The notes: a model not told the origin generated them from the sequence alone. DNA of 33,902 nucleotides from a virus (IMGVR_UViG_3300042905_005012:1-33902), one strand, 5' to 3'. Positions 13,447-33,347 are shown, counted from the first letter of the stretch. A program made the numbers and translations.

Positions 13447-13477
13447 ATTGTTATTTGAATTGAGACAATGCGGACGA

Positions 13478-13558: not shown

Positions 13559-13589
13559 GAGGAATCTTTTCTCTTGGGTGGATTTTCTC

Positions 13590-13678: not shown

Positions 13679-13691
13679 TGGGTTGCTTACC

Positions 13692-13991: not shown

Positions 13992-14011
13992 AAACATATA
14001 GAAAGATATAG

Positions 14012-14044
14012 CCCCCTTGACAGACAAGTCAAGGGGGTTTTTTT
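14012..14044 (+). terminator. Intrinsic terminator
   Basis: CCCCCTTGAC / GTCAAGGGGG with T7. Confidence 0.93.
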
Positions 14045-14070
14045 ATTGTTATTTCAATTGAGGCAATGCG

Positions 14071-14098
14071 GACAAACTTAGGATACTAAAATGTGGTT
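14071..14098 (+). repeat. Conserved element, last and most diverged copy
   Basis: ggacaaacttaggatacta core, ending aaaatgtggttagg instead of ggatgg. Confidence 0.75.
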
Positions 14099-14118
14099 AG
14101 GAAGAATCTTTAGGTTGG

Positions 14119-14801: not shown

Positions 14802-15965
14802 ATGAAAAGATTTAAAGAGTGGTTTTTGATTAATGACAAGAAATTTACAATTGATGAAGTTTTAGGGTCAGTTGGAGGTTATCCGGTTCAGCATAATCTT
14901 TCACAGGGTTTGCAAAATCAGCCGCCGTCTAATGATTATGGTTGGTCTTCTCAATTTGGTTCAAATTATGGTGATGAGTATAAAAAGCATTTTCCAGACA
15001 AGGATATTGATTCTGATGATGTTGGTAGTCGATATGGTAGTTCTGGTTGGGATCACAATTTTAAAGGTGGTGACAAGAAAATTATAGAGAATCCTAGAAA
15101 TTTTAAATTGATAATGTCTGGTCTTGAAAAGAAGTTAGAGAAGCTTGGTATTGTGAACATACATTTCTATTTTGGTTATCCTAAAGATGATATTAAGTCA
15201 GGATTTACTATAAGGAAAGAGTTAACTAAAGACAACTACGATCAATTAAAAAATTATTTTTATGGTCGTGATGGAATGAACATAAGTAAGAGTGATATTG
15301 TTTACATGAAGACGAGTACTGCTGCTGATCCTTTGACTCCTTGGTTGATTCTTCACACATTTGCACATGGTATTTTTGATAGAGGGTCACTTGCTCGTAC
15401 AGCAGATTATGGTAATACATACATGAATAAAATTCAGGAGGATTGTGTTAGAGCTGAAAATTTAGTTAAGGAACTTTTGAAAGACTTTTTGGTTAGTCCG
15501 ATGTATCCACAGTTTTATCAAGGTTGGATTGATGTGTTGAAAGATGGTAATAAAGAAGCTTTGTATACTGATGAAGAAATACAAAAAAGAATAGGAAATA
15601 TAACTATAGATTTTCTAACAATTTTGTTTCCTAGTATTTGGAGTATAAAGGAAGCGTTTAAGATAATATCTGGAGCCAGATCGGGTCAATTTATAAAATC
15701 GAAAATGGATTTACAACAGGCTTTAAATTCTGGGGAGTTACAGATGGAGATATTTGTATTTTGGTTAACTCAAGGAGGAAGGTTGCCGATAGTTGATCCT
15801 AATTACAAAGTAAAGTTGCAAAAATTATTTGCAGGTAGGGAGCCGGAAAATTTTGATAGTTTGTTAGAGGGTTTGGAGAGTAGATTTAATGAAATTGCAG
15901 CCTCTTACCATTCAATTATAGATGGTTGCAGGGGTGAAGTTATTATGGATAGAAGGGGCAGTTGA
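14802..15965 (+). CDS. Tagged HxxxH protein (paralogue of the 27167 gene), 387 aa
   Basis: It starts with the tag MKRFKEWFLIND, followed by a polar, Gly/Ser/Tyr-rich stretch to about residue 90. The conserved core is shared with the protein at 27167: a strand IHFYFGYPKDDI, then DPLTPWLILHTFAHGIFD (about 181-198), and a later E...EIFVFWLTQGGRLP. The HxxxH plus downstream acidic residues could be a metal site like a degenerate zincin, but the Glu of HExxH is missing, so catalysis is uncertain. Start chosen by the tag; no SD. A putative packaged effector (inference). Confidence 0.7.
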   Translation: MKRFKEWFLINDKKFTIDEVLGSVGGYPVQHNLSQGLQNQPPSNDYGWSSQFGSNYGDEYKKHFPDKDIDSDDVGSRYGSSGWDHNFKGGDKKIIENPRNFKLIMSGLEKKLEKLGIVNIHFYFGYPKDDIKSGFTIRKELTKDNYDQLKNYFYGRDGMNISKSDIVYMKTSTAADPLTPWLILHTFAHGIFDRGSLARTADYGNTYMNKIQEDCVRAENLVKELLKDFLVSPMYPQFYQGWIDVLKDGNKEALYTDEEIQKRIGNITIDFLTILFPSIWSIKEAFKIISGARSGQFIKSKMDLQQALNSGELQMEIFVFWLTQGGRLPIVDPNYKVKLQKLFAGREPENFDSLLEGLESRFNEIAASYHSIIDGCRGEVIMDRRGS

Positions 15966-15969
15966 TATT

Positions 15970-16566
15970 ATGAAAACATTTTTTGAATATTTGGACCGAA
16001 CAGATGATTATTTGTGGTTAAGCGAGATGACTATTGTGGGAACTGATGGAGGTAAGCCGAAGCATTCGGAGTGGAGTCGCAATGATTTGTTTTACTTCGA
16101 TGTTGAGGGTGATGATTGTAGTCCCAAGTGGTGTTATTTGGTCTGGTTTGAGGAGTTGAAATCGAATAGCTATGAAGTTGAGTTTAAAAGGGGAAGTAAC
16201 AATTCTAAGGATGAGAGGCGTGGAGTTGGTATTAAGGTGATTGGTGCTGTTTTTTATGCAATTGGTGAGTTTATCAAAAATAATAATCCTGATTATCTGA
16301 TATGGAGTCCGTCAAAAACAAAAACTGCCAATCCTGTTACTGGAATAATAACGAATCCTGAAGGTCGCAGAGATGCGTATGATATTTTTGCCATCAAGGG
16401 TTTATTTCCTTCATATGTTTCGGTAAAAATAAATCAATGGATGAGGAGAGATATATATGAAAGGGAATATGTTCCGAAGGGTTATCCATCTATTCCAGAG
16501 AATTTGACAATGGAGTCGAGTCCTTTGGAAAAGAAGAAATTTTTACAAAATATTCGTGCGGTATAA
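15970..16566 (+). CDS. Tagged phage protein, possibly GNAT-like, 198 aa
   Basis: The start at 15970 gives the tag MKTFFEYLDRTDDY; the longer in-frame ORF overlaps the upstream gene. The core (VGIKVIGAVFYAIGEFIKNNNPDY, then SPSKTK..., then GRRDAYDIFAIK) follows the pattern of a phage hypothetical family in which a long helix precedes 'NPD..I.FS' and an R.+.Y motif. It is reminiscent of the GNAT acetyltransferase fold, which I cannot confirm. It lies 4 bp after the preceding tagged gene, so the two are probably co-transcribed. Confidence 0.68.
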   Translation: MKTFFEYLDRTDDYLWLSEMTIVGTDGGKPKHSEWSRNDLFYFDVEGDDCSPKWCYLVWFEELKSNSYEVEFKRGSNNSKDERRGVGIKVIGAVFYAIGEFIKNNNPDYLIWSPSKTKTANPVTGIITNPEGRRDAYDIFAIKGLFPSYVSVKINQWMRRDIYEREYVPKGYPSIPENLTMESSPLEKKKFLQNIRAV

Positions 16567-16573
16567 ATGTGTA

Positions 16574-16783
16574 TTAAGAAGGGTCGTAACCGAATTCTTG
16601 TAGCATGTCACCGTTAGTGAATAGGTGTTTAGCTGGTACTGTTTTGGATATTATTTTGAATACGTTATTCAGGCTTCCTTCTCCGTGTTCTTTTGCATAA
16701 TTTCTTGTGAGGCAGACCCAATCACCGGGGTTGATGGTTATTTTAATTCTTTTGGCTTTTAGTTGTTCTATTGGGTGAGGTTT
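16574..16783 (-). pseudogene. C-terminal remnant of a phage ART-type protein
   Basis: The minus strand has an open frame of 69 codons with no start codon, bounded upstream by an in-frame TAA. It reads ...INPGDWVCLTRNYAKEH, then GEGSLNNVFKIISKTVPAKH, LFTNGDMLQEFGYDPS and a stop. The pattern GDWV.L.R.YA..HGE.......K.V.A..LF..G....E.GYDP is one I know from the C-terminal ends of phage proteins, often linked to ADP-ribosyltransferase-like or internal virion proteins. With its front missing, it is a decayed gene trapped between two tagged genes. Confidence 0.6.
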
Positions 16784-16794
16784 TTAATTATTTG

Positions 16795-16802
16795 GAATAA
16801 AT
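16795..16802 (+). promoter_or_regulatory. AATAAATA late-promoter-like box
   Basis: It is followed 30 nt later by the ATG at 16833, which has a GGAG in its leader. It resembles the T4 late promoter TATAAATA. Confidence 0.35.
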
Positions 16803-16832
16803 ATACATGGGTAATTAAATATTGGAGATTAT

Positions 16833-17741
16833 ATGATTCGTTTTATGGATTGGGTTTTGATGAGAGAAAATGAGAGTGAAGGAGAGTCCTGCATCAAGGG
16901 CGAATGGATATATTATCCAAATGGTAAGTTGCAGAATGCCATAAGATCTGACAGATCCAGAGGACATACAGATTTAATATCGCAATATTATGTCACGAAA
17001 TACAAAAAAGCTTTATTTGATTTTTATACTAATTTTAGGAACAATCCTTGTGTTAACAAGGAAAAGCTTGAGAGAGAAGAGAGAGATGTCAGGCGTGGTC
17101 ATGTTCATTCTTCCGGTTTCTTTTTTCCTCCTTCCGATAAGACATACATCAATCATGAAAATTTTGGTTTGATGTATTCGGTAATTAGCGACATGATATC
17201 CTCTGATGTGTATAATAATGATAAAGAATGTGAAAATTATATTGAGCAAATAATGGCTAAAGGGTTGGATGAGGCTTTGGGATCGGCTTCATCAATTTTG
17301 CAGAAGATAGCTATGGGTCATGGAGAAGAGCAGCTTGAAGTAGAGGCGATGAAGGATGCTGGTATGATACTTGTGAGGGGTGCCAACAATTTCGACATGT
17401 ATTCGTATGACAAGGAGAAATTGATAAATTGCCTTAAGGCTATTTGTGCCAAGAATCAGCGTGTCAGGTCAACTAGTGATGATGAAGCTCTCCTGTATCA
17501 GCCTGCTACTATGAATACAACTATTTTTGTAAATACATTTGATAAGGGTGGGAAATCAGTAACAACTATGACTGTGAAGGACTTATTGGTGGGAGAAACG
17601 CCGCAGCAGGCATTTGACCTTCCGGCTGCACATTTGGCTGTTGAGCCGTTTTCCAAGGCAGCTATGATGCGAAGAGATGTTTTAAGGGACCAATGGAAGC
17701 AGAGGACGAGTGAGTCCGTCAGAGGAGAACGGATTTATTAG
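16833..17741 (+). CDS. Tagged protein of unknown function, 302 aa
   Basis: The tag-like start MIRFMDWVLMRENE is followed by a polar region, helical segments (about 40-170) and a C-terminal part with strands (MNTTIFVNTF, KSVTTMTVKDLL). No motif recognised. GGAG lies 7-8 nt before the ATG, one of the few tagged genes with an SD. The C-terminal end is basic (RRDVLRDQWKQRTSESVRGER). An orphan copy of the 35-bp cassette repeat follows its stop. Confidence 0.66.
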   Translation: MIRFMDWVLMRENESEGESCIKGEWIYYPNGKLQNAIRSDRSRGHTDLISQYYVTKYKKALFDFYTNFRNNPCVNKEKLEREERDVRRGHVHSSGFFFPPSDKTYINHENFGLMYSVISDMISSDVYNNDKECENYIEQIMAKGLDEALGSASSILQKIAMGHGEEQLEVEAMKDAGMILVRGANNFDMYSYDKEKLINCLKAICAKNQRVRSTSDDEALLYQPATMNTTIFVNTFDKGGKSVTTMTVKDLLVGETPQQAFDLPAAHLAVEPFSKAAMMRRDVLRDQWKQRTSESVRGERIY

Positions 17742-17760
17742 GTGTTATGATTTGCTCAGG

Positions 17761-17795
17761 TGTATTTATGTATGTTGATTTAATTTGTGTAGAAG
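17761..17795 (-). repeat. 35-bp cassette repeat, orphan copy A
   Basis: tgtatttatgtatgttgatt and on to 17795; nearly identical to copies at 18419, 18753 and 19881. On the minus strand it has no ATG behind it, so it is either the 3' border of the first cassette or the promoter of a lost gene. Confidence 0.85.
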
Positions 17796-17821
17796 TGGTG
17801 TGTAATATTTCTGGTATTGGG

Positions 17822-18415
17822 TTATAGGAATTCGTGATCTCCATTTCGATCTGATCGTCTTCTTGGTCTGATGAGTGGAATTGGTTTTGGTAATTTTGTT
17901 GGTAATGTTTTGATATTTACGAGGATTGGGTTGTATGGTATTTTCCAAGTGATGATAGTTTCTTCTGTGATTTCGTCTATTTCGTCTGTCATTGGGTAAT
18001 AGTCACGACGTGTGATATTAATAATTTTTGTTTTATCGATATAGACTGCGTAGCAATTTTCTCCATAGATTTTTTCTGGTTTATCGCCGCAGAATAGCAT
18101 TCTGTATCCTTTTTTGTTAAGAAAATTGGCAGCTTTTACCATCCATTGTTGGCGTTCTGTTGTGAGTGATTGATTTTTCTCATATGGATCGTCTCCATAT
18201 TCTTTTATGAATTCGTAGTAGTCCTTTTCTTCTATGATATTTTCGATATATCTTTTGACGAATACTTCAGCACTCATGTCTTCTTCGCTGGGACCAGAGA
18301 CATGTACTTGACCGAAGTGTGGATCTGTGTCTGGTTCTATTTGACGGCAGTTATAGCCAACGAGGTCTAGGCTAGCTGTTGATGTTTCATTATAAATAAA
18401 TTCTTTAAAGTTCAT
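17822..18415 (-). CDS. Tagged protein of unknown function, 197 aa
   Basis: Tag-like start MNFKEFIYNETS. Acidic helical middle (SAEVFVKRYIENIIEEKDYYEFIKEYG), a small beta-rich part (YRMLFCGDKPEKIYG, NCYAVYIDKTK), and a Pro/Arg-rich tail (LPKPIPLIRPRRRSDR). No family recognised. No SD; ATAAATA is 5 nt before the ATG. Flanked on both sides by the 35-bp repeat. Confidence 0.67.
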   Translation of the reverse strand: MNFKEFIYNETSTASLDLVGYNCRQIEPDTDPHFGQVHVSGPSEEDMSAEVFVKRYIENIIEEKDYYEFIKEYGDDPYEKNQSLTTERQQWMVKAANFLNKKGYRMLFCGDKPEKIYGENCYAVYIDKTKIINITRRDYYPMTDEIDEITEETIITWKIPYNPILVNIKTLPTKLPKPIPLIRPRRRSDRNGDHEFL

Positions 18416-18794: not shown

Positions 18795-19877
18795 TTAATC
18801 ATCATGTGTTGAAGTAAAGTTTGATGGATCGTTAACATATTGTTTAATTGAATTTACTTTTTCTGGTAAGTAAGTTGCAATAAATTTTTCTCTTTCTGAT
18901 GTGGACATGTTTGTATATTTCATTAGTTCTAGTAATTGTTTAATGGAGATTTCTTTTTTGTAATTTATTAGTTCAATTAATTCTTCTATGGAGATTTCTT
19001 TTTTGTATTTTACTAGTTCTAGCAATTGTTCCACGGATATTTCTTTTTTATATTTTAATATAAGTCTTACAATAGTATTTTTGTATTTTTGATCTATTAA
19101 TTTATTTCTCTTTATGTATTCGAATATTTCTTCAAAATTAGATTTTTCATCCTTTATAAGGGTTACAATTTCTGATACAGATTTCAAATTATTTGGAGTA
19201 ATTGTTGCGTATTTTTCTCTTTGATCTGGTTCTAAATCTTGTATATCTTTGATGTTAGCTTTATCTGTTGATGTATTCCATCCTTTATTTGCGTACAGTT
19301 CGTTCATTTTATTGATATCTTCAACTTGTGCTTCTGCGTAACCAAGCATTTTTATTGTATTATCGTTCACTGGTTTATATTTTACTAAACAATAGCCATC
19401 ATTTGTTCCATAATAAATAATGCCTTTTATTGTATGCAGTATCCCAATATTTTCTCTACAAAATTTAACTGCATTATTACCATTAACAGTTCCGGTTTTT
19501 TCTTGTGCTTCATCGTATTGTCTAAGTTTATCTTCTGTAAAGCTTCCTGCTAAATTAAAATTTTTCAATTGATCACTGATTTTGTAATTTTGACCATGAA
19601 TTTTTTTAGCCATATTGGGGTGGAATACAAGATATTTATCAAGATCGGTGACATGAAACTTGATAACATAATTACCATATATGCTCATATAACTTTTAAA
19701 TTGGCTTTCTAGTGAGATGGTAGTGTAAAGACCATTACCATACATTTGACCACCACCGGTTTTGTATCCAGATTGTAGAATTCTTTCAATATTGCTAGCG
19801 TGTTCAGTCCTATGATAAACCGTAGCGGTGTTATTGGGATAAATTTCTTCGTTGATGAGCCATTGTTTAAAGTTCAT
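18795..19877 (-). CDS. Tagged ART-like protein with C-terminal helical repeats, 360 aa
   Basis: Tag MNFKQWLINE|E, which contains an I-x-E site like the T4 gp21 prohead protease site. The core is ADP-ribosyltransferase-like: ATVYHRTEHASNIERILQSG (H-containing strand and helix), GNGLYTT (aromatic/STS-like strand), then VIKFHVTDLDKYLVFHP. A conserved block GIIYYGTNDGYCLVKY (about 155-170) is shared with the paralogue at 22648. The C-terminus has three tandem repeats YKKEIS(V/I)xxL(L/I)EL, about 16-18 residues each. No SD; promoter-like ATAAATA 5 nt upstream. ART activity is inferred; the catalytic Glu is not certain. Confidence 0.72.
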   Translation of the reverse strand: MNFKQWLINEEIYPNNTATVYHRTEHASNIERILQSGYKTGGGQMYGNGLYTTISLESQFKSYMSIYGNYVIKFHVTDLDKYLVFHPNMAKKIHGQNYKISDQLKNFNLAGSFTEDKLRQYDEAQEKTGTVNGNNAVKFCRENIGILHTIKGIIYYGTNDGYCLVKYKPVNDNTIKMLGYAEAQVEDINKMNELYANKGWNTSTDKANIKDIQDLEPDQREKYATITPNNLKSVSEIVTLIKDEKSNFEEIFEYIKRNKLIDQKYKNTIVRLILKYKKEISVEQLLELVKYKKEISIEELIELINYKKEISIKQLLELMKYTNMSTSEREKFIATYLPEKVNSIKQYVNDPSNFTSTHDD

Positions 19878-19880
19878 GGT

Positions 19881-19915
19881 TATATTTATGTATGTTGATT
19901 TAATTTGTGTAGAGG
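19881..19915 (-). repeat. 35-bp cassette repeat, copy D, with ATAAATA box
   Basis: ATAAATA (minus, 19883-19889) is 5 nt before the ATG at 19877. Diverged relatives occur at about 21135-21180 and 22607-22640. Confidence 0.85.
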
Positions 19916-19937
19916 GTTGATATTTTTCTGGATTTTT

Positions 19938-19947
19938 TATATATAAA
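19938..19947 (+). promoter_or_regulatory. TATATATAAA box 4 nt before ATG
   Basis: Directly precedes the tagged gene at 19952, with no SD. Confidence 0.45.
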
Positions 19948-19951
19948 CATT

Positions 19952-20746
19952 ATGGATAATTTCAAAGAGTGGCTTCGACATGATGAAGGTTATTCACATG
20001 ATATTGTTATTAATGGTCCTTTCAGGTTTTATCATGGAACTAGTTCTGGAAAGAACGATGAGGTATTGAATTCATTTAAGAGGGATGGTGCTAGGTCTTC
20101 GGGATACGGTCATGGTCAGGGAGGTGGTTTATTTCTTTGGACATCGGATGAAAGCGCAAAAACTCATGCTTTGGCTCGTATGAACAGAGAATTGTATGGT
20201 TTGAAGGGTTCTTTAGAGGGTAATCCTATAGTTGTTGTAATAGATGTTCCAAATATTGATTTTGGTGAATGGGATTTGGACATTGAGAATCATGCGAAGG
20301 ACATTCTTACTTATGCTTCTAAAAGAGTTGGAAAGCTGAACAAGTTGGGAGATGTTAATTTAACAGACAAGACAAAAGAATATTTGTCAAAGGATGAAGT
20401 TGGAGAAAAGTTGACTGGTATTGATGCCGAGCCAATTCCATTTTCGACTATCAAGAAGAATCCTGTAGCCAGAAGTTTGTATGGTAAATTTCCCGGTAGA
20501 ATAGGAAGTGTTCGTGATCCTTTGTTGAATGATAACCCTTATTACAGTGCAGGAGCAGCATCTAATATAGCTCCTTTTTATTATGGACATCAGGATCGGA
20601 ATCCAGAATTGCATAAAAAACTGGAATCTTGGTTTTTCCAGAATAATTATGGAAAGAATCCTATGGCTTTGAAGTACACAGGAGAAAGTTCTTTACCTGT
20701 GACTAAAATTTTAGTTCATAATGGACAGGATTGGATTGAGTCTTGA
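19952..20746 (+). CDS. Tagged ART-like protein, 264 aa
   Basis: Tag MDNFKEWLRHDEG. Then FRFYHGTSSGKNDEVLNSFK and GHGQGGGLFLWTSDESAKTHA: the YHGTS strand-helix and the G-x-G-hydrophobic-aromatic-T-S strand of the ART superfamily, followed by IVVVIDVPNIDFGE as the next strand. The C-terminal half has no known domain. Catalytic residues H (YHGT) and the T/S strand are visible; the third (E/Q) residue I cannot place. No SD. Its stop lies 6 bp from the end of the convergent ParB-fold gene. Confidence 0.68.
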   Translation: MDNFKEWLRHDEGYSHDIVINGPFRFYHGTSSGKNDEVLNSFKRDGARSSGYGHGQGGGLFLWTSDESAKTHALARMNRELYGLKGSLEGNPIVVVIDVPNIDFGEWDLDIENHAKDILTYASKRVGKLNKLGDVNLTDKTKEYLSKDEVGEKLTGIDAEPIPFSTIKKNPVARSLYGKFPGRIGSVRDPLLNDNPYYSAGAASNIAPFYYGHQDRNPELHKKLESWFFQNNYGKNPMALKYTGESSLPVTKILVHNGQDWIES

Positions 20747-20752
20747 AGAATG

Positions 20753-21133
20753 TTACATTTTGAATTGTTCTAATTCATTTTGGTCTAGGACATAAGCTTT
20801 GATAGTTTGTTGGTTTAGGGAGTGAGCTTTTGCTAGTCTATGGACACCGTCAGCGATAAAGAGACCGTCTGGGTATTTGACGATAATGATTGGGTATTTG
20901 AGGTCAGTTAGTTCAGTTCTTTTGATAAATTCTGGATGACCGGGTAGTTCATCACCTTCTTCGTGTGGGGATGGTTCTAGGTTATGTAGTAGGGGTTCTA
21001 ATGGCATTTCTTTTATTGTTTTGTTTTCTGTTGCGTAGTTGACTATTTGTGGTACGGAGTAGGTGCCGTTGTTATCGGAGAAGGTTTGGTCTTCCATTCT
21101 GTAGGATTCTAGGAATTGTTTGAAAGTGATCAT
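20753..21133 (-). CDS. Tagged small ParB/Srx-fold protein, 126 aa
   Basis: Tag MITFKQFLESYRM. The C-terminal half YPIIIVKYPDGLFIADGVHR and LAKAHSLNQQTIKAYVL fits the ParB/sulfiredoxin-like domain: 'P..V...dG.y...DG.HRl.Aa...g...i.a.v'. The length of 126 aa covers only that domain, with no HTH. Such stand-alone domains can be nucleases or NTP-dependent enzymes; the DG-HR box supports nucleotide binding (family knowledge), but the activity here is unknown. ATAAATA 4 nt before the ATG, no SD. Confidence 0.7.
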   Translation of the reverse strand: MITFKQFLESYRMEDQTFSDNNGTYSVPQIVNYATENKTIKEMPLEPLLHNLEPSPHEEGDELPGHPEFIKRTELTDLKYPIIIVKYPDGLFIADGVHRLAKAHSLNQQTIKAYVLDQNELEQFKM

Positions 21134-21137
21134 GTAG

Positions 21138-21144
21138 TATTTAT
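21138..21144 (-). promoter_or_regulatory. ATAAATA box 4 nt before ATG
   Basis: Minus strand, before the ParB-fold gene. The surrounding 21135-21180 is a diverged form of the 35-bp repeat. Confidence 0.5.
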
Positions 21145-21200
21145 GCTTATTTGTGGATTTAATTTATAGAGATGTGGTGTGATTTTTTTGTTTAGTGGAA

Positions 21201-21206
21201 TATATA
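21201..21206 (+). promoter_or_regulatory. TATATA box 7 nt before ATG
   Basis: Before the tagged sigma-factor gene at 21214; no SD. Confidence 0.45.
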
Positions 21207-21213
21207 GTTTATT

Positions 21214-21897
21214 ATGAAAACATTTTTTGAATATGTTATTAATAGAGATTTTCATGAATCTGTAGATCCAGAAGCAGCCGAGATAATTTTTAAGTGTAAG
21301 AGGAATTTGGAGAATTTATTTTTATGGTATTCTGATAATTTGGGTAAGAAGGAAAAGTTTTATGATAGATTGGACAATAATATAAGAAATTGTTTTAGGA
21401 ATAGTCTTTTGCCTTATCAGCGTAGAATGGTTATAAGAAACATTGTTGATGAAGAGGACATTATCAACAGGACTTTGCTGAGGGTTCACAATACGGTTGA
21501 AAAAAAAATAAGAAATAGAAAATTGAATTACAATTTAATTGGTGGTTTGATTACAAACATGATTAGAGCATCTGTTGTGGACATTATAAGGCGTAATAAT
21601 TGGAAGAGTGAGAAAGGAAATGTGAGTTTTAACACAGTTGGTACTATTCATGAGCCTAGTTCATTTGCTGATGATCCATCGTCTGAAAAGATGGGATTAG
21701 AGGATTTGTTAAGGGTTCCCAATTTGAGTCCAAGGCAGAAGATTATTTTGACTCGCAGGTCTGAGGATGTAATGAATAAAGATATTGCGGCAGAATTGAA
21801 TATTCGTCCTTCTTATGCAACAATTCTTTACAATGATGCGATTGATAAGATTAAAGAGTACTATGGTATAGGCACTTATTCCTCAGATTCAGAATAA
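21214..21897 (+). CDS. Tagged ECF-type sigma factor, 227 aa
   Basis: Tag MKTFFEYVINRDFHES, nearly the same as that of the 15970 protein. Residues ~78-130 match sigma region 2 (VDEEDIINRTLLRVHNTV ... LITNMIRASVVDIIRRNN), including the DxxDhhxxThhRhh core and the terminal D..RR DNA-contact helix. Residues ~165-222 match sigma region 4 (NLSPRQKIILTRRSEDVMNK then DIAAELNIRPSYATILYNDA), a helix-turn-helix for the -35 element. The absence of a region 3 domain fits the ECF class. Such a factor could read the ATAAATA-type boxes, or act in the new host cell if packaged (both inference). No SD. Confidence 0.75.
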   Translation: MKTFFEYVINRDFHESVDPEAAEIIFKCKRNLENLFLWYSDNLGKKEKFYDRLDNNIRNCFRNSLLPYQRRMVIRNIVDEEDIINRTLLRVHNTVEKKIRNRKLNYNLIGGLITNMIRASVVDIIRRNNWKSEKGNVSFNTVGTIHEPSSFADDPSSEKMGLEDLLRVPNLSPRQKIILTRRSEDVMNKDIAAELNIRPSYATILYNDAIDKIKEYYGIGTYSSDSE

Positions 21898-21953
21898 TTA
21901 TATTAATTTTATTAGAATTAACTGGAGTTGTTACGGTGATTATTTGAAAGTGA

Positions 21954-22604
21954 TCATGTAGATTTTTTCCCCTTTTTTTTCTTTAAATCTTTCATAACTT
22001 CATCTACATCTATTTCTTTTAAATAATCTTCTAATGATTTAGGAGTTACTTCTGTTCTAAGATCGATTAATTCTGCTGATTTGGAATCACCTTCTGCAAC
22101 TAACATGATAGTATCATATCCCTGACTTTTTGCGATACCAGTCATGGGAAAATCTAATTTATCATAAGAATTGAAATCTTTGGTAGGTCCATTTTCATTA
22201 AAGTGTGATTTTATTACTTGATTTATATATCTATTGTTTAAATTTTGGTCAGCAGCAAGTCGTAAAAAATTTGCAGGATTAATATAAAACAATATATAAT
22301 TGTTGGGAAATCCTAATAGGTGAAGTGCATGTACTTTATTCCATGCTAATAAGCATTTGCCCAGATCAAGTTTAGTATCATTTTCATCTCCTATAAAATA
22401 CCAAACTCCTCTTGAATACTTCCTGAGACGTGGTGCGAATCCTTCAAATCTATAGACATAAACGAAACCTTGATCCAAATATTTTTTCGCATCAGCGGAA
22501 TTAATTCTTCTTCCTGCCAGCGATTTTCTGACATTTGGGTCAGTAACAGTACCTATTGGGATGATTTCTCTAGCAAATTCAAGGAATTGATAAAAGTTGA
22601 TCAT
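21954..22604 (-). CDS. Tagged ART-like protein, divergent, 216 aa
   Basis: Tag MINFYQFLEFA. Then FVYVYRFEGFAPRLRKYSRG and VWYFIGDENDTK resemble the first strand and STS-like strand of an ART fold. GYDTIMLVAEGDSKSAELID near residue 175 resembles the C-terminal strand in which phage ARTs carry 'GYD.I......E...'. The C-terminal tail is basic (KDLKKKKGKK). The fold call is tentative. AATAAATA is 4 nt before the ATG; no SD. Confidence 0.58.
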   Translation of the reverse strand: MINFYQFLEFAREIIPIGTVTDPNVRKSLAGRRINSADAKKYLDQGFVYVYRFEGFAPRLRKYSRGVWYFIGDENDTKLDLGKCLLAWNKVHALHLLGFPNNYILFYINPANFLRLAADQNLNNRYINQVIKSHFNENGPTKDFNSYDKLDFPMTGIAKSQGYDTIMLVAEGDSKSAELIDLRTEVTPKSLEDYLKEIDVDEVMKDLKKKKGKKST

Positions 22605-22608
22605 GTTG

Positions 22609-22615
22609 TATTTAT
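22609..22615 (-). promoter_or_regulatory. ATAAATA box 4 nt before ATG
   Basis: Minus strand, before the 22604 start. Confidence 0.5.
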
Positions 22616-22647
22616 TGGTGTATATTTAATTAATTGTTAAATAAATT

Positions 22648-23799
22648 TTATTTACGGGAACGCATAGCTCTAGAAATAAAATCAGACAATTCTGGTCTTT
22701 CGCCGGTTTTAGTGTCTATTGGTCTTCTGTCTGGATCTGATGTATAATCAGACCATACCTTGCTGGTTTGAGTGTCCATTGGTCTGTAGGTTTTAGGAAA
22801 CATAGCTCTAGAAATAAAATCAGACAATTCTGGTCTATTCTTAAGTATAAATGAACAAATTTCCCATGAGTCTGTTGAATATTTCATTAACAATGAAATA
22901 TCATCAACTGTTAATTCTTTTTTATTTTGTATAATTATTTTTGCAAATGCGTTTTTATTTTTAACAGAATTCATTATTTTTAATAATTCATCTTTTTCAA
23001 TATTTTTCTCTAGTTTTAGTTTTTTGATTATTTCCAAGACAGTTGGATTTTTTTCTTTTATTTTAATATATTTTTCTCTTTGTCCGTATGGGGTTTTATC
23101 AATAGATTTTAATTTGGCTATATCTGTTGATGTTGTCCAATTTTGAGATTTTTCTAAATCTTTCATTCTATTTTTGCTTTTTATTATCCCATCTTTTTCA
23201 TAATTTTTGTGTGGGTCGGTTGCATATCCGATCATAGTAATTGTTCCGTCATTTACTGGACGGAATTTAAGCAAGCAATATCCATCATCATATCCCCAAT
23301 AAATAACGCCTTTTATTTTACTTTTTATCCATTCGTTTTCAATTAAAAAAGAATAAACGTCAGTGATGTGGTTATATTGATTTGTGACTAGTTTTTCGTC
23401 TATATCATCAAGATAATTTTGTGTGAATTTTTGTGAAATTTTGAATTCTCTAAGTTGATCACTTAATTTGTAATTCTCTCCATGAATTCTTTTAGCCATA
23501 TTTGTATGGAATACAAGATATTTATCAAGATCAGTGACTTTGAATTTTATTATAGCATTTCCGTAAGTTTCTGCCTTTCCCATAGTGCTTTCAAGATCAA
23601 AGACGAAGAACATCTGCCCCGGTTGATTGTCTTTATCAAAATCGGATAACATAGGATGGTCTTTATCAAAATCGGATTTAGATCCATATTGGAGTATTGA
23701 AAGTGCATTTTCAATTTCGTCGGTTCTATGATAAACTATTGCCGTTTTGCCATTACGGTCAATTTCTTCTGTAAGTAGCCATTGTTTAAAATTAGTCAT
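22648..23799 (-). CDS. Tagged ART-like protein (paralogue of 18795), 383 aa
   Basis: Tag MTNFKQWLLTE|E with an L-x-E site. It matches the 18795 protein through VYHRT, VTDLDKYLVFHTNMAKRIHG, the KGVIYWGYDDGYCLLKFRPVND block and NWTTSTD...QREKY. Helical linker repeats follow. Near the C-terminus the segment (R)PELSDFISRAM occurs twice, from a 36-bp direct DNA repeat (22662-22698 and 22801-22836). A second small duplication, SDFDKD, lies at about residues 37-57. ART activity is inferred from the shared YHRT strand. ATAAATA 4 nt upstream, no SD. Confidence 0.7.
   Translation of the reverse strand: MTNFKQWLLTEEIDRNGKTAIVYHRTDEIENALSILQYGSKSDFDKDHPMLSDFDKDNQPGQMFFVFDLESTMGKAETYGNAIIKFKVTDLDKYLVFHTNMAKRIHGENYKLSDQLREFKISQKFTQNYLDDIDEKLVTNQYNHITDVYSFLIENEWIKSKIKGVIYWGYDDGYCLLKFRPVNDGTITMIGYATDPHKNYEKDGIIKSKNRMKDLEKSQNWTTSTDIAKLKSIDKTPYGQREKYIKIKEKNPTVLEIIKKLKLEKNIEKDELLKIMNSVKNKNAFAKIIIQNKKELTVDDISLLMKYSTDSWEICSFILKNRPELSDFISRAMFPKTYRPMDTQTSKVWSDYTSDPDRRPIDTKTGERPELSDFISRAMRSRK
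22662..22836 (-). repeat. 36-bp direct repeat inside the tagged gene
   Basis: catagctctagaaataaaat with the following 16 bases occurs at 22662-22698 and 22801-22836, with a partly repeated spacer (gtgtc[tc]attggtct). Confidence 0.88.
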
Positions 23800-23803
23800 G
23801 TAT

Positions 23804-23810
23804 TATTTAT
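23804..23810 (-). promoter_or_regulatory. ATAAATA box 4 nt before ATG
   Basis: Minus strand, before the 23799 start. Confidence 0.5.
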
Positions 23811-23911
23811 GATTACTTGTGGATTTTCTGAAATGAATTTGAAATGGAATGGGTGGTTAAGAGTTTTGAGTTTCCACATACTTGCTTCTTCGGGAGTTGC
23901 GGGTAATCTTT

Positions 23912-25225
23912 CTATTTAATTCCTAATATTTCTTTAGCTTCAGTGGAATATAAGTGGTCATTTTGATCTCTATTGTTTCTTGAGTAAACAGTTCTTAATT
24001 TTTGATCTATTTCTTTCCATGAATTTTTGCCAAGGTATTTAGCATATTTTATTATTACTTGTATTGCGTAATCATATATTCTAATGTATTCGCTTTTCAT
24101 TTGCAGATATTCATCAAAAATATCATGCTTATACAAATCAAGTACAATTTTTTGTGCTTCTTTATCGAAATTACTTCTGCTGATAACAGAATTTCTTGTC
24201 TTTTCCAATATACCTTCGTTTATTGATTCACAAATTAACCATGCATTAGTTGCCCATTTTGCATTCTTTATTATTTCGTTAAATTCTTCGCTGGTTATTG
24301 GTTTGAGTAAGCTACCTTTTCTATCAATTATTTCTTTATCATAAAGTGCAAAGAATACGGAATCTTTGTTTCTATGTTCTTTTGTTGTAATTAATTTTTC
24401 GTATGTGGGATGATTCATTGTTGGTGTTTCTTCATAAGGCAACCATTTTAATCTATTGATATCTTTGCTAATTTCATATGGCATGATGCTTGAGTTTTGG
24501 ATAATGCCTTTATAGGCAACTGTTCCTATCTTGTGCATGGATTCTTCCCAAGTTTCTGCTCTTGCGTCTTCATCGGGAAAAAGTCTTGTTGGATCTATTG
24601 CATATGAATTTATTTTTAATATGAGTGGAAGACCGCCATGATTTTTTGCTGCTTGTGTAGCTGCTTCTCTTGTAGCATAATCAGGATGAATTGTAAGATA
24701 ATTAAACATTCCTCTTGATAAGGCTCTGACTGATGATGCACCATAAGATCCAGAACTTCCAGATATTTGTCTTGGGACCAATCCTTGTTCTTTGATGAAC
24801 ATATTATATAAGTTTGTAGAGGTGCCGTGATAAAAATATTTTGGTAGATTTACTTTTGGTTCTGTTCTTTGTTGGTCAAGCCAATATTGTACTGTTCTAT
24901 GTTTTGTTGAAGGATTTCTAAATCCTGCAACTCCTGTCTCGGAAACGACATAGTTTAATATTTCAGGATATATTTTTTTAATTGTGTTAATTACATTAGC
25001 AAAATTTTTAGATAATGGTTGTAATGATCCTGTTGCTTCGATTGACTTATATTTTTTCCCAATTTTTATTATATTGGTTTCAATATGAGGGCTTGTAATT
25101 AATATTTTTCCATTAGGGGACAGTTGTAAGTGTAAATAAGAATGTTCTGTAGAATTAATTTCTTTAATAAATTCTTCTTTGTCAATTATTGCTTCGGTTA
25201 ACAGCCATTGTTTGAAAGTGGTCAT
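23912..25225 (-). CDS. Tagged ART-like protein, largest of the set, 437 aa
   Basis: Tag MTTFKQWLLTE|A; the L-T-E then A matches the T4 gp21 cleavage pattern. An N-terminal alpha/beta domain spans residues ~12-125. The ART-like core begins KYFYHGTSTNLYNMFIKEQG (about 128-148), followed by GLVPRQ, YLTIHPDYATREAATQAA (STS-like strand and helix) and GGLPLILKINSYAIDP. A helical C-terminal domain follows (about 300-437). This architecture is like phage T4 Alt in being large, multidomain and tagged, but the sequence is not recognisably Alt. No SD; ATAAATA 4 nt upstream. Confidence 0.72.
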   Translation of the reverse strand: MTTFKQWLLTEAIIDKEEFIKEINSTEHSYLHLQLSPNGKILITSPHIETNIIKIGKKYKSIEATGSLQPLSKNFANVINTIKKIYPEILNYVVSETGVAGFRNPSTKHRTVQYWLDQQRTEPKVNLPKYFYHGTSTNLYNMFIKEQGLVPRQISGSSGSYGASSVRALSRGMFNYLTIHPDYATREAATQAAKNHGGLPLILKINSYAIDPTRLFPDEDARAETWEESMHKIGTVAYKGIIQNSSIMPYEISKDINRLKWLPYEETPTMNHPTYEKLITTKEHRNKDSVFFALYDKEIIDRKGSLLKPITSEEFNEIIKNAKWATNAWLICESINEGILEKTRNSVISRSNFDKEAQKIVLDLYKHDIFDEYLQMKSEYIRIYDYAIQVIIKYAKYLGKNSWKEIDQKLRTVYSRNNRDQNDHLYSTEAKEILGIK

Positions 25226-25229
25226 GTTG

Positions 25230-25236
25230 TATTTAT
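25230..25236 (-). promoter_or_regulatory. ATAAATA box 4 nt before ATG
   Basis: Minus strand, before the 25225 start. Confidence 0.5.
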
Positions 25237-25244
25237 GATAATAT

Positions 25245-25727
25245 TTACAATTTATCTATTGATTTCATATAGTTGACATAAAATTGGGTAGCTTTTTTGT
25301 AATTATCGTCGATAGACATCCAGAAGTCTATTTTTGATTGATTTGGTTCTGGGTAATCTTTTATTAGGTGTCTTGCGAGGTCGGTCCATCTTTCGTGTAT
25401 GCCTATAATTTGTTCTGGTGGTATTACGTCTACCAAGACGTAGCTTGGTGGTGAGAATTGTTCTTCTGGGATGAAGAATTCGATAGTAGCTAGGTCTGAT
25501 TTGATGTTATAGAATGGTTTTCTTGCAGCCCAGATTACAGATGGTTCGTGGTGCGATTTTCCTGTTGACAAAGATTTAGTTATGCCATTTTGTTTAATTG
25601 ATGGAACATTTTCTGGATTTGTTTGATGATAGAGTCTTACGCATCCATCTGGTATTGGAGCGGTTCCCATTTCTGGTGGTAGTTCTAAGTCTTCTTTATT
25701 TTCTAAAAATTGTTTGAAGGTGATCAT
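25245..25727 (-). CDS. Tagged ART-like protein, short, 160 aa
   Basis: Tag MITFKQFLENKED. CVRLYHQTNPENVPSIKQNG is the YHxT strand plus helix of ART-like and KptA-like folds. WAARKPFYNIKSDLATIEFF and VDVIPPEQIIGIHERWTDLA are the later strands, the latter ending in an E/H-rich motif. At 160 aa this is a minimal single-domain ART-like protein. CTAAATA is 4 nt before the ATG, no SD. Confidence 0.68.
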   Translation of the reverse strand: MITFKQFLENKEDLELPPEMGTAPIPDGCVRLYHQTNPENVPSIKQNGITKSLSTGKSHHEPSVIWAARKPFYNIKSDLATIEFFIPEEQFSPPSYVLVDVIPPEQIIGIHERWTDLARHLIKDYPEPNQSKIDFWMSIDDNYKKATQFYVNYMKSIDKL

Positions 25728-26517: not shown

Positions 26518-27084
26518 TTACAAGCTTAGGCTTGGGCAATAAACGAGGTAATAGTGTCTTCTTTTGTTATCTGAAGGTTTTCTATCAACTTCTTGACGGT
26601 ATGACCATTCTTCTCCTAGTGATCTTGCTATTAGTTGTCTTAATTCATGTGGTACAGATTTTGATGTAGATACTACAGTGTATTTCATTCCATCGTTATA
26701 TCCTCCGTAGTCTTTTTCGGGATGTCTTTTTGGCTTATATTCTTTGATAAAGTCTTCTATTGGTGGCAATGGTGGTTTTGGTTGAGGAGGTGGTGCTGAT
26801 GCTTTGGTTCTCATTTCAGCTCTGGTTCTCATTTCGATCCATTTTTTAAATTCTTTTGCTGTTTGGTTTTGATCTTTGCGTTTATGGAGTAGTTCGTGAG
26901 TCCATTTAACTAATTCTGGGTTAAATTCTAATAGTTCTGGTTCCCATTTTAGGAGATCTGGATCTGTATCGATTGGTTGTGGAGGAACTGGCGATCCATA
27001 TTTAGCGAAATTGGCTGTAATGTCTTCTAATGCTTTTCTTAGTTCATCGTTTCTAGATTCTAGAAATTGTTTGAAAGTATTCAT
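26518..27084 (-). CDS. Tagged proline-rich protein of unknown function, 188 aa
   Basis: Tag MNTFKQFLESRNDE. Then Pro/Glu/Leu-rich segments (LLKWEPELLEFNPELVKWTH), a short MRTRAEMRTKA repeat, and a polyproline stretch (PPPQPKPPLPP). A small C-terminal domain ends WSYRQEVDRKPSDNKRRHYY. No enzyme motif visible. CTAAATA is 6 nt before the ATG, no SD. Confidence 0.66.
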   Translation of the reverse strand: MNTFKQFLESRNDELRKALEDITANFAKYGSPVPPQPIDTDPDLLKWEPELLEFNPELVKWTHELLHKRKDQNQTAKEFKKWIEMRTRAEMRTKASAPPPQPKPPLPPIEDFIKEYKPKRHPEKDYGGYNDGMKYTVVSTSKSVPHELRQLIARSLGEEWSYRQEVDRKPSDNKRRHYYLVYCPSLSL

Positions 27085-27154
27085 AGTGTATATTTAGTGA
27101 TAATTTTAAATAAATTGCTAGTAGAGAAGTTAAAATATTTCGCCGGGGTTTTTC

Positions 27155-27160
27155 TATATA
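27155..27160 (+). promoter_or_regulatory. TATATA box 6 nt before ATG
   Basis: Before the tagged gene at 27167; no SD. Confidence 0.45.
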
Positions 27161-27166
27161 GGTACA

Positions 27167-27982
27167 ATGAAAAGTTTTTATCAATTTTTGGAAGCTTTAT
27201 CGAGTCATGGTGGCTTTACGATGCCACATGGAGATGAATTTAAGCCATCTCTTAATGAAAAAGATACTGAATATATTTCTGGCATGTATAAAAGACCGCT
27301 TGTTATTAGTAGTCGTAGCAAGCTTCGTGGTGGCATAATATCTGTTTTAGACACAGTATTGGCAAGAGTCAAAGGCTTTAATTTTCATATATACTTTGGT
27401 GAATATAACAGAGATGACATAGATATTCAAAAATACTTTTTTGATAAAATTCCAAAAGAGGATATAGTTTTTCTTAAGAAATCATCACAAGGAGATTTAC
27501 TAACTCCTTGGATGATTTTGCACAATATGGGTCATGCAGTGTTTGAAATGGGAAATTCGTCTTCTAAAGATACAATTAAGATGGCTGTTTTCAATTTAGT
27601 TACACATCTGACATTTGGCAAAATACCTTTTACAACAGTGAATAAATTCTATGACAACAATGAATTTCCTTCAGTAGAATTTAAACCAAACAAAATATTG
27701 CCTTTATTGTTTAATTTTGCATCTGCAAAATCAACTGTGGAAAATAAAACTGTACAAGATGCCGACGAATTGGCATATGAAATTTTTGTATCTTATTTAT
27801 ATGGTGGTGGTAAATTAAAACGTCCTGATTTCAAAAAATTGACTAAGTTTTGTAATGAAAATTCTCCTATTAACCATACTGAAAATATTGTTGAGAAAAC
27901 AGTTAATATTGCTTTTACCAAAATAGAAAAAGAAATAAAAAAATCATTGGAATATTGTCGAGGAAAAGTAATAGAGGATTAA
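27167..27982 (+). CDS. Tagged HxxxH protein (paralogue of the 14802 gene), 271 aa
   Basis: Tag MKSFYQFLEAL. It shares with the 14802 protein FNFHIYFGEYNRDDI, then DLLTPWMILHNMGHAVFEMG (HxxxH, about 111-130) and DELAYEIFVSYLYGGGKL near residue 200. It lacks the long polar insert of its paralogue. Conservation of both His residues and of the downstream E.(A/M).EIFV across two diverged copies supports a metal or active site. Function unknown; the HExxH Glu is missing. Confidence 0.7.
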   Translation: MKSFYQFLEALSSHGGFTMPHGDEFKPSLNEKDTEYISGMYKRPLVISSRSKLRGGIISVLDTVLARVKGFNFHIYFGEYNRDDIDIQKYFFDKIPKEDIVFLKKSSQGDLLTPWMILHNMGHAVFEMGNSSSKDTIKMAVFNLVTHLTFGKIPFTTVNKFYDNNEFPSVEFKPNKILPLLFNFASAKSTVENKTVQDADELAYEIFVSYLYGGGKLKRPDFKKLTKFCNENSPINHTENIVEKTVNIAFTKIEKEIKKSLEYCRGKVIED

Positions 27983-28079: not shown

Positions 28080-29177
28080 ATGGACAAAAAAAAAGATGTA
28101 GCATCAAGAAGAAGAGCTGCTGTAATTAATCTTAACAGTTTAAACAAAATAATAAATGAGGGAGACATGGCTAGTAGAATCAAAAATAATTTACTAGCTT
28201 CTTCTTCTTTAGGCAGTGGACAAAAAATTGTAAAATCTATTGGTGGAAGAAATAAAAATAATATTGTTCCTGAGAAACCTAGACCAGATAAAGACTTTTT
28301 AACAACTGTAAATGCAAAATTTATCAAGATTGATATCCCAGAAAAAGGTTCATTCAATGCTGGTTTAGTCGAATTAGATGATGATCATTATGTTTGTGTA
28401 TACCGCCCAAATGAACTAAAGTTTGTCGGTTGTATATTAGACAAAAATTACAAGGTGGTTGAAAAGTCTTATCATAAATTTAATATAAACAAATGTGCTG
28501 ATCCAAGATTAATTTGGACTAAAGATAATCAGTTGTTGATGATTTATTCTTATATTGAAAACGACAAGTATGAAACAGAATACATGAGAGGAACTGTTAT
28601 AATGGATAACAGATCTTCTGGTAAATTTATTGAAGATACATCTTTTAGAATAAGTCCTGCTCATATGAATTCAAGGCAGAAAAATTGGATGCCTTTTGAT
28701 CATAATGGTAAAATATATATTATAAACTCTGTTTGTCCTCATGGGATTTATGAATTAGATAACAACTTTAAATGCAAGAAAGTTTTTGAAAGTTCTTGGG
28801 TATCTCCATGGAAGATAGATGCTCATTTGAGAGGAAATACTAATGCTGTTAGATTAGATGATGGTAATTATCTTGGCACTTTTCATACATCAATGATTCA
28901 TAGTCACAAACATCACTATGACAATGGAGTTTATTTGTTTTCTGGTGAGCCTCCATTTAATGTTTTAAAATGTGCTAATAGAACTTATTTGCCAGCAGAT
29001 GCAGCATGTGAAACGCCTTTTAGAAAACAAAATGAAATTGCTTGTATATTCCCTATTGGAATGGTAAGAAAAAAAGATAAAATTATAATAAGTTATGGCG
29101 ACAATGATTCTGTAGTTAAAATTGCTGAATATAAACTACAAGATTTACTTAACACTATGGTCTCAGTAGATTTGTAA
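28080..29177 (+). CDS. GH130-like beta-propeller glycoside phosphorylase/hydrolase, 365 aa
   Basis: MDKKKDVASRRRAA start, no tag, polar N-terminal ~70 residues. The rest shows repeated propeller blades: FNAGLVELDDDHYVCVYRP, DPRLIWTKDNQLLMIYS, KNWMPFDHNGKIYIINSV, LRGNTNAVRLDDGNYLGTFH and IFPIGMVRKKDKIIISYGD. These are typical of the GH130 five-bladed propeller (mannosyl phosphorylase family), with the 'DPR' and 'ISYG..D' motifs. Substrate unknown. AAGGA about 8-10 nt upstream. It lies next to sulfotransferase and glycosyltransferase genes, suggesting a glycan role. Confidence 0.7.
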   Translation: MDKKKDVASRRRAAVINLNSLNKIINEGDMASRIKNNLLASSSLGSGQKIVKSIGGRNKNNIVPEKPRPDKDFLTTVNAKFIKIDIPEKGSFNAGLVELDDDHYVCVYRPNELKFVGCILDKNYKVVEKSYHKFNINKCADPRLIWTKDNQLLMIYSYIENDKYETEYMRGTVIMDNRSSGKFIEDTSFRISPAHMNSRQKNWMPFDHNGKIYIINSVCPHGIYELDNNFKCKKVFESSWVSPWKIDAHLRGNTNAVRLDDGNYLGTFHTSMIHSHKHHYDNGVYLFSGEPPFNVLKCANRTYLPADAACETPFRKQNEIACIFPIGMVRKKDKIIISYGDNDSVVKIAEYKLQDLLNTMVSVDL

Positions 29178-29198
29178 GATAAGGTTTGTTTACATTTA

Positions 29199-29690: not shown

Positions 29691-29693
29691 GAT

Positions 29694-30293: not shown

Positions 30294-30299
30294 ATTTCC

Positions 30300-30962: not shown

Positions 30963-31109
30963 AGCTTAATATATTAAGATAGGAAGGAAAAATGTGTAGA
31001 ATATATTTTTGAACCAAGAGAGAAACGAACTAAGAAAAAACTGGAAAAAACCCAATAAAGATTTTAAATCATTATTGTGATTATAACTAAATTAATGTGA
31101 GGATTAATT

Positions 31110-32823: not shown

Positions 32824-32925
32824 ATGTGTTGTGGAAGACCTTCAAAAAAATCAAAAACAAAAAGTAAAAGCAGGAAGATTAAAAAAGAAGTTAAAAATGA
32901 AGTTAATAAAGAGGAAAAAAAATGA
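32824..32925 (+). CDS. Very small basic CC-containing protein, 33 aa
   Basis: MCCGRPSKKSKTKSKSRKIK and on, almost half Lys. AGGAG lies 7 nt upstream and the TGA overlaps the ATG of the NUDIX gene (ATGA). Tiny MCCG proteins occur in T4-like phages, as I recall, but I know of no function. The coupling and SD support expression. Confidence 0.5.
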   Translation: MCCGRPSKKSKTKSKSRKIKKEVKNEVNKEEKK

Positions 32926-33347
32926 AAAGTTTTCAGGATTTTTTAAAAGGAAGATTGCCCAAGTCTGCGACAGTAGCGGTTTTTAACAATAATAAATTAT
33001 TATTGTTAAGAAGAAGCAGTACTGCTCCATGGATGCCTTTATATTATTGTCTTACTGGTGGTGGTGTTGAAGAGGGAGAAACTCCAGAAGATGCTGCATC
33101 AAGAGAAATGATAGAAGAAATAGGACTTGATATTCCTCCATATGAATTAAAAAAGGTTCAAACAAGAGTTGAAGATGATTATGTTAATTTTGTCCATGCA
33201 ACAGTTGTAGATAATCCAAAAATAAGATTGAATTTTGAACATGATAAATACGAATGGTGTGATTATGAAGATTGCAAAAAATTAAATCTTGTCCCAAATC
33301 TGGATATTATCATTGATAACTTGAAAAATAAAGGATATTTTGGATAA
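32922..33347 (+). CDS. Tagged NUDIX hydrolase, 141 aa
   Basis: Tag-like MKSFQDFLKGRLPK. A complete NUDIX box, G(x5)E(x7)REUxEExGU, is visible as GGVEEGETPEDAASREMIEE plus IGL (about 48-70). Preceding strands ATVAVFNNNKLLLLRRS. The length of 141 aa is normal. It cleaves nucleoside diphosphates linked to X (NDP-sugars, ADP-ribose, cap structures); the substrate cannot be read from sequence. Since ART-like proteins abound here, NAD- or ADP-ribose-linked substrates are a guess. The SD is GAGG 8-9 nt upstream. Confidence 0.85.
   Translation: MKSFQDFLKGRLPKSATVAVFNNNKLLLLRRSSTAPWMPLYYCLTGGGVEEGETPEDAASREMIEEIGLDIPPYELKKVQTRVEDDYVNFVHATVVDNPKIRLNFEHDKYEWCDYEDCKKLNLVPNLDIIIDNLKNKGYFG

What the first reader, a model, noticed from the sequence alone, without database searches (positions are those of the whole stretch)
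18795..25727. Bank of ADP-ribosyltransferase-like tagged proteins
At least four proteins (18795, 19952, 23912, 25245) and their relatives (22648, more weakly 21954) carry YH(R/G/Q)T followed by a helix and a G-x-G/aromatic-T strand, the opening of the ART fold. They differ strongly elsewhere, and the 16574 fragment looks like another ART-type remnant. T4 packages one such enzyme (Alt) and makes two more (ModA, ModB). Six or so in 7 kb, all tagged, would be a striking expansion, perhaps each for a different host target.
Basis: partly seen in the sequence, partly recalled or inferred. Interest (0 to 1): 0.78.

Follow-up and report, generated by a model that had tools for sequence, protein, structure and literature searches.

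The report
Phage bank of packaged ADP-ribosylating proteins
This T4-type phage carries a row of about fifteen genes whose proteins share a head-packing address tag, and at least two, probably four to six, look like enzymes that attach ADP-ribose to other molecules, so each virus particle may inject a mixed set of takeover proteins into its host.

Summary
The bank is real. All seven ORFs in the reported span carry the N-terminal tag, as do 15 of 43 window genes (0.4 expected by shuffling) and many genes in relatives. The tag resembles the T4 capsid targeting sequence (T4 IpI begins MKTFKEF), and a close relative's contig encodes T4-type portal, prohead protease and major capsid protein.

The ART reading is well supported for 18795 and, by homology, 22648: a 7-sequence model (pLDDT 74) finds a "PolyVal ADP-ribosyltransferase" as best viral match (E 8e-5); the best PDB match is the ART ParT, not significant. 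Invariant residues suggest an H-Y-D triad; 22648 has lost the Tyr. 23912 has weak PARP/Tpt1 evidence; 19952 is linked to it by profile comparison only (67%, controls at most 2%). 25245 and 21954 stay unproven. The 16574 piece is the C-terminal part of a family intact and tagged in three relatives. Two relatives encode tagged proteins above the ART-PolyVal cut-off.

Packaging, cleavage, NAD use and targets are inferred. Tagged internal proteins and head-packaged ARTs are each known; the scale, the ART diversity and the one-gene cassettes with a TAAATA box just before the ATG are the new part.

The parts
18795..19877 (-). P1: tag + ART domain (about residues 12-190; H22, Y51, D160) + C-terminal ~16-aa helical repeats
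   Evidence: 7-sequence family A11, pLDDT 74.3, pTM 0.70; BFVD top hit PolyVal ART E 7.9e-5 prob 1.00; PDB top hit ParT not significant; Pfam Tox-ART-HYD1 weak E 0.05 for one relative
22648..23799 (-). P5: tagged paralogue of P1 (40% identity); keeps H and D but Tyr is Phe and the G-x-G loop is lost, so possibly degenerate
   Evidence: blastp E 4e-55 to P1; alignment A8
23912..25225 (-). P6: tag + N-terminal domain + Tpt1/PARP-like ART domain (about residues 118-262, YHGTS at 132-136)
   Evidence: relatives at 78-81% in three contigs and 34% in L052; L052 hits PF00644 E 0.0023 and PF01885 E 0.046; best PDB profile hits are Tpt1 6e3a/6ede, E 0.55, not significant
19952..20746 (+). P2: tag + YHGT/GHGQGGG ART-like domain
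   Evidence: relatives L010 (94%), L075 (39%, fused to NUDIX) and L119 (27%, from a 381-kb record); HHalign to P6 67%; no Pfam/PDB hit
25245..25727 (-). P7: tagged, YHQT motif; orphan, ART unproven
   Evidence: no relative in any search; HHalign at most 4% to ART families
21954..22604 (-). P4: tagged, VYRFE...RGVWYF...ELIDL; ART only possible
   Evidence: 39% relative L074:12498-13097; HHalign 2% to ART-PolyVal
16574..16774 (-). broken C-terminal part of an R-S-E-like family (GDWV...YA..HG...EFGY)
   Evidence: blastp E 7e-19 or better to L045/L017; profile hit 6e-36 in the window and intact in three other records; alignment A10
20753..21133 (-). P3: tagged protein with weak ParB-like hit, between P2 and the next tagged gene
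   Evidence: phrog_17560 E 4e-12, ParB-like phrog_33277 E 5e-5; no Pfam hit
21214..21897 (+). tagged sigma/LuxR-type HTH protein
   Evidence: GerE in 4/4 homologues (best 8e-5), Sigma70_r4 best 0.0035, Sigma70_ECF 0.028
14802..18415 (.). other tagged genes upstream: 14802+, 15970+, 16833+, 17822-
26518..27982 (.). other tagged genes downstream: 26518-, 27167+
32922..33347 (+). tagged NUDIX hydrolase
   Evidence: PF00293 E 4.5e-18

Best explanation
A bank of single-gene cassettes in a T4-type phage. Most genes have their own late-promoter-like TAAATA/TATATA box just before the ATG and encode a protein starting with a capsid targeting sequence. The tag draws the protein into the prohead core; the phage's gp21-type protease probably trims it, and the mature proteins are packed with the DNA and ejected into the next host. 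Two of these proteins (18795, 22648) have an ADP-ribosyltransferase fold, two more (23912, 19952) probably do, and two (25245, 21954) may. The active ones would use host NAD+ to ADP-ribosylate host proteins or nucleic acids at the start of infection, as T4 Alt does, or to defeat defences. Shown here: tags, relatives, ART fold by prediction for the 18795 family, promoter-like boxes, T4-type head genes in a relative. Inferred: packaging, cleavage, ejection, NAD use, targets.
For: 15/43 window genes tagged against 0.36 expected. Scored with a tag matrix, T4 internal proteins IpI, IpIII and IpII rank 1, 9 and 10 of 115 T4 proteins; papers describe the T4 internal proteins as highly diverse with only the CTS conserved (PMC3012670), with targeting at residues 4 and 7 (PMC9026906). 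[LI]xE near the tag in 80/169 against 48 by shuffling. The L009 record has a gp21-type protease (E 2.6e-28), gp23 (E 1.2e-87) and a gp20-type portal (E 3e-72). P1 fold. Tagged ART-PolyVal proteins in L005 (E 9.6e-19) and L016 (E 1.7e-18). Four tagged P1 paralogues within 13 kb of L118. Box TAAATA at -13..-8 in 9/16 genes against 0.7% chance.
Against: No window protein reaches a curated ART threshold. The P1 PDB search gave no significant hit, and the best viral TM-scores are only about 0.37-0.39. 22648 lacks the Tyr and G-x-G. 25245 and 21954 have no support beyond motif shape. Only 3/15 window tags contain a strict [LI]xE within residues 7-18, so cleavage is uncertain for many. The prohead protease and capsid genes were found in a relative's record, not in this 33.9-kb record. 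There are no virion proteomics or enzyme data.
Confidence: 0.6

Rival explanations
1. The ART-like domains are head-packaged but are binders or signal scavengers rather than transferases: they bind NAD+/ADP-ribose signals (with the co-tagged NUDIX enzyme degrading them) and so counter NAD-based immunity.
For: P1 family has Asp where canonical ARTs have Glu, and 22648 has lost the Tyr; a tagged NUDIX in the window and an ART-like+NUDIX fusion in L075; head-packaged ADPr-targeting enzymes are proposed in PMC9503650.
Against: H and D are invariant in 7/7 P1-family proteins and Tyr in 6/7, as expected of an active site; a weak HYD1-type ART family hit exists.
Confidence: 0.15
2. The tag is not a capsid targeting sequence but another assembly or membrane-docking motif, so these proteins act late in the same cell or sit elsewhere in the virion.
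For: Many window tags (FKQFLES, FKQFLEN) lack the strict (L/I)xE cleavage motif; no virion data exist.
Against: Residue-level similarity to T4 IpI/IpII/IpIII; gp20/gp21/gp23 genes in the L009 record; tagged small proteins lying in the head gene cluster of two relatives (L070:11632, L082:6938).
Confidence: 0.15
3. Only the P1/P5 pair (and perhaps P6) are ARTs; 19952, 25245 and 21954 are unrelated tagged proteins that share short motifs by chance or convergence.
For: No family hit for P2, P4 or P7; P7 is an orphan.
Against: YH[GRQA]T in 15/146 tagged and 0/475 untagged ORFs; P2-P6 profile match 67% against at most 2% for controls.
Confidence: 0.3
4. 23912 and relatives are Tpt1/KptA-like RNA 2'-phosphotransferases used for RNA repair, not protein modifiers.
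For: Best, non-significant, PDB profile hits are Tpt1 (E 0.55); L052 hits PF01885 weakly.
Against: The same relative scores better against PARP (E 0.0023); the tag fits an injected effector better than a repair enzyme (inference).
Confidence: 0.15

Closest known systems
T4 internal head proteins IpI, IpII, IpIII with capsid targeting sequence
   Same: Short N-terminal tag of the same pattern (MKTFKEF / MKTYQEFIAE) on otherwise unrelated proteins; gp21-type protease in a relative
   Different: Fifteen tagged genes in 14.8-33.3 kb, mostly stand-alone and in both orientations, including enzymes; many tags lack strict (L/I)xE
T4 Alt (head-packaged ART), ModA, ModB
   Same: ART in a T4-type phage, predicted to be delivered with the DNA
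   Different: No sequence relation found; Alt does not carry this tag (MELITELFDED, rank 44 of 115); here H-Y type families, several per phage
ART-PolyVal (PF18760), ARTs of phage polyvalent proteins
   Same: Nearest named fold match of P1; two relatives encode tagged PF18760 proteins
   Different: Window proteins do not reach PF18760; here ARTs are separate tagged proteins, not domains of one giant polyprotein
Tox-ART-HYD1 (PF15633)
   Same: H-Y-D residue pattern and collinear weak match
   Different: E 0.05, below the family cut-off
Tpt1/KptA (PF01885) and PARP (PF00644)
   Same: P6 family motif order YHGTS...GL.PR...YLT.HPD.A
   Different: Scores below the curated cut-offs; catalytic residues not assignable
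Head-packaged ARTs, Macro, NADAR and Nudix proteins of myoviruses (PMC9503650)
   Same: The same general idea; that survey reports phage G with at least 10 ARTs and packaging contexts for about 44% of phage ARTs
   Different: In the passages read, packaging is argued from gene neighbourhood and fusions; here a shared tag marks the whole set

Membership tests
ART superfamily (18795 and 22648) | ART fold | tested here: met
   Model pLDDT 74.3; BFVD top hit PolyVal ART E 7.9e-5; further named hits include ART and PARP proteins; PDB top hit is an ART but not significant. 22648 by homology only.
ART superfamily (18795 and 22648) | catalytic H-Y-E or equivalent triad | tested here: inconclusive
   H22 and D160 invariant 7/7, Tyr 6/7 (Phe in 22648); Asp instead of Glu, as the name of HYD1-type ARTs implies
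ART superfamily (23912) | family/fold match | tested here: inconclusive
   L052 relative: PARP E 0.0023, Tpt1 E 0.046, both below cut-offs
ART superfamily (19952) | family/fold match | tested here: inconclusive
   HHalign 67% to the 23912 family, controls at most 2%; no direct family hit
ART superfamily (25245, 21954) | family/fold match | tested here: inconclusive
ART superfamily | NAD+ binding, NAD-dependent transfer | not testable with these tools
   needs purified protein
ART-PolyVal PF18760 | curated Pfam score | tested here: not met
   No window match; met by tagged relatives L005:2293-2787 and L016:622-1215
T4-type CTS internal protein | N-terminal tag of T4 Ip type | tested here: met
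   15 window genes; T4 IpI/IpIII/IpII rank 1, 9, 10 of 115 by tag score
T4-type CTS internal protein | (L/I)xE cleavage site at the end of the tag | tested here: inconclusive
   80/169 over all loci against 48 by shuffling, but 3/15 in the window
T4-type CTS internal protein | gp21-type prohead protease in the same phage | tested here: inconclusive
   Present in the close relative's record (L009) and two others; the 33.9-kb window record is a fragment and does not cover it
T4-type CTS internal protein | present inside the virion and ejected | not testable with these tools
   needs virion proteomics

The most novel reading that the evidence does not exclude
A T4-type phage lineage uses its head as a general effector-injection device: dozens of interchangeable one-gene cassettes (near-leaderless late promoter + targeting tag + effector), carrying several unrelated ART families, NUDIX enzymes, ankyrin and helical-repeat proteins, and possibly a virion-delivered sigma factor, comparable in breadth to a bacterial secreted-effector arsenal.
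Probability: 0.4. Interest if true: 0.86.

Novelty: new variant of a known kind. Interest (0 to 1): 0.68.

Why it matters
If the tag is a true packaging signal, it is a readable label for every protein the phage injects, so the injected set of uncultured T4-type phages can be listed from sequence alone. Several distinct ART families in one particle would suggest that host takeover or defence evasion at time zero is spread over many NAD-dependent modifications, and would give a directly testable list of candidates.

Tried and rejected
(1) First structure job on the P1 family with 3 sequences gave pLDDT 45.8 and a meaningless fold search; it was replaced by the 7-sequence domain alignment. (2) Phage nucleotide and tblastn searches gave no match. 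(3) Both genome-contig scans (P2 and P6 families) found no bacterial relatives. (4) P7 found no relative in any search. (5) The P1 profile hit on the ART-PolyVal relative in the genome search (E 5e-5) was not counted as ART evidence, because the shared tag alone gives similar scores in other records. (6) Pfam hits such as OB_YrrC, DUF7757, LSDAT_euk, HTH_DeoR and RXLR_WY were judged chance (low scores, below cut-offs). (7) Membership in the T4 Alt family was considered and not supported: different N-terminus and no sequence match.

Full report
Context. The window is the whole of a 33.9-kb virus record from IMG/VR. It has no DNA match, and its ART candidates no protein match, in the annotated phage collection, but relatives exist in other uncultured viral contigs. 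The closest, the L009 record (70.6 kb), shares the neighbouring methyltransferase and glycosyltransferase-type genes and carries a T4-type prohead protease, major capsid protein and portal. The phage is therefore very probably of the T4 superfamily, although the window itself holds none of those genes.

The tag. Fifteen of 43 curated window genes start with M-x(1-3)-F-x-x-[FWY]-[LIVF], most often MxxFKQ(W/F)L; shuffling the N-termini gives 0.36 on average. They form an almost unbroken run from 14.8 to 28 kb, on both strands; only 18467 and 25964 in that run are untagged. The same tag recurs on 169 distinct ORFs over the fetched loci, with most of the genes of L007 tagged. T4's own internal proteins begin MKTFKEF (IpI) and MKTYQEFIAEA (IpII, IpIII); scored with a matrix from the new tags they rank 1, 10 and 9 of 115 T4 proteins, even though that matrix was built on F-only tags. 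[quoted passage not shown] The (L/I)xE cleavage motif is enriched near the tags overall (80/169 against 48) but strict in only 3 of 15 window proteins (18795 INE, 22648 and 23912 LTE), so trimming is uncertain for the FLE-type tags.

ART evidence, by protein. 18795 and 22648 are paralogues (40%); with L005:8001 and four tagged paralogues in L118 they make a 7-member family. H22, R23, T24 and D160 are invariant and Y51 is kept in six. The 7-sequence model reached pLDDT 74.3. Against BFVD the only match with E <= 0.001 is a 'PolyVal ADP-ribosyltransferase', E 7.9e-5; several lower named hits are ARTs or PARPs. Against the PDB nothing is significant; the best is the ART toxin ParT with TM 0.34-0.37. 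One relative has a weak, collinear hit to Tox-ART-HYD1, which fits the H-Y-D pattern. 22648 has lost the Tyr and the G-x-G loop and may be degenerate.

23912 has a Tpt1/PARP-like pattern; its relative L052 hits PARP (E 0.0023) and Tpt1 (E 0.046), and Tpt1 tops the PDB profile search without significance. 19952 has relatives at 94, 39 and 27%, the second fused to a NUDIX domain and the third in a 381-kb record, and matches the 23912 family at 67% in HHalign, where tagged non-ART control families never exceed 2%. 25245 is an orphan with a YHQT motif, and 21954 lacks YHxT; neither is established. The 16574 piece is the C-terminal part of a tagged family intact in three records. In relatives, tagged proteins include two above the PF18760 cut-off. 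YH[GRQA]T is confined to tagged ORFs, 15/146 against 0/475.

Regulation. Thirteen of 16 genes examined (tagged genes plus 18467) have TAAATA, TATATA or TAGATA starting 10-14 nt before the ATG; TAAATA alone lies in the -13..-8 window in 9/16 against 0.7% by chance, usually without a Shine-Dalgarno sequence. This resembles a T4 late promoter placed so close that the mRNA would be leaderless or nearly so (inference); the capsid gene of the L009 record has no such box but an AAAGG-type sequence before its start. Each gene thus looks like a self-contained cassette.

Mechanism and limits. The most likely reading is late synthesis, tag-directed packing into the head, possible trimming by a gp21-type protease, ejection with the DNA, and NAD-dependent modification of host molecules by the ART members. 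Only the sequence anatomy, the relatives and the predicted fold are shown; packaging, cleavage, ejection, catalysis and targets are inferred.

Comparison. Head-packaged ARTs and NUDIX proteins in myoviruses are already proposed, with phage G encoding at least 10 ARTs (PMC9503650), and the T4 internal-protein locus is the known model for tag-shared diverse cargo. What is new is the size of the tagged bank, the several distinct ART families within it, and the cassette layout. I rate it a new variant of a known kind.

Noticed in passing
window 21214-21897 (+): A tagged protein with sigma region 4 / LuxR-type HTH hits in all four homologues (Sigma70_r4 0.0035, GerE 8e-5). If packaged, it could be a virion-delivered sigma factor.
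   Followed up: partly
window, upstream of tagged genes 14.8-28 kb; also L007, L070-L081: TAAATA/TATATA box 10-14 nt before the ATG, usually without Shine-Dalgarno, suggesting near-leaderless late transcripts.
   Followed up: partly
window, upstream of 17822-, 18467-, 18795- and 20753-: A shared ~45-nt upstream element (CTCTACACAAATTAAATCAACA...CATAAATA), nearly identical before three genes.
   Followed up: no
window 7508-14107: Eighteen copies of a 31-nt intergenic repeat (TTTAGGATACTAAAATGTGGATGGGAGGAAT), looking like repeated early promoters before small ORFs.
   Followed up: no
L078:2951-4027 (-), record of L010: DUF1559 pseudopilin-type protein (PF07596 E 1.3e-42), to my knowledge typical of Planctomycetes; a possible host hint.
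   Followed up: no
L070:12517-15045 (-): T4-type portal gene interrupted by an intein (PF14890 E 4e-14).
   Followed up: no
L009:9985-15756 and L005:9606-12203: Tagged proteins with a shared N-terminal domain (GINPKS.Y.TPLGIYFYPL) followed by ankyrin or helical repeats; the N-terminal domain might be another ART-like fold.
   Followed up: no
L075:14617-16086 (-): 19952-type ART-like domain fused to a NUDIX domain in one tagged protein.
   Followed up: no
window 28080-32806: Glycan-type genes: GH130-like (E 5e-10), sulfotransferase (E 5e-8), family 2 glycosyltransferase and a methyltransferase.
   Followed up: no
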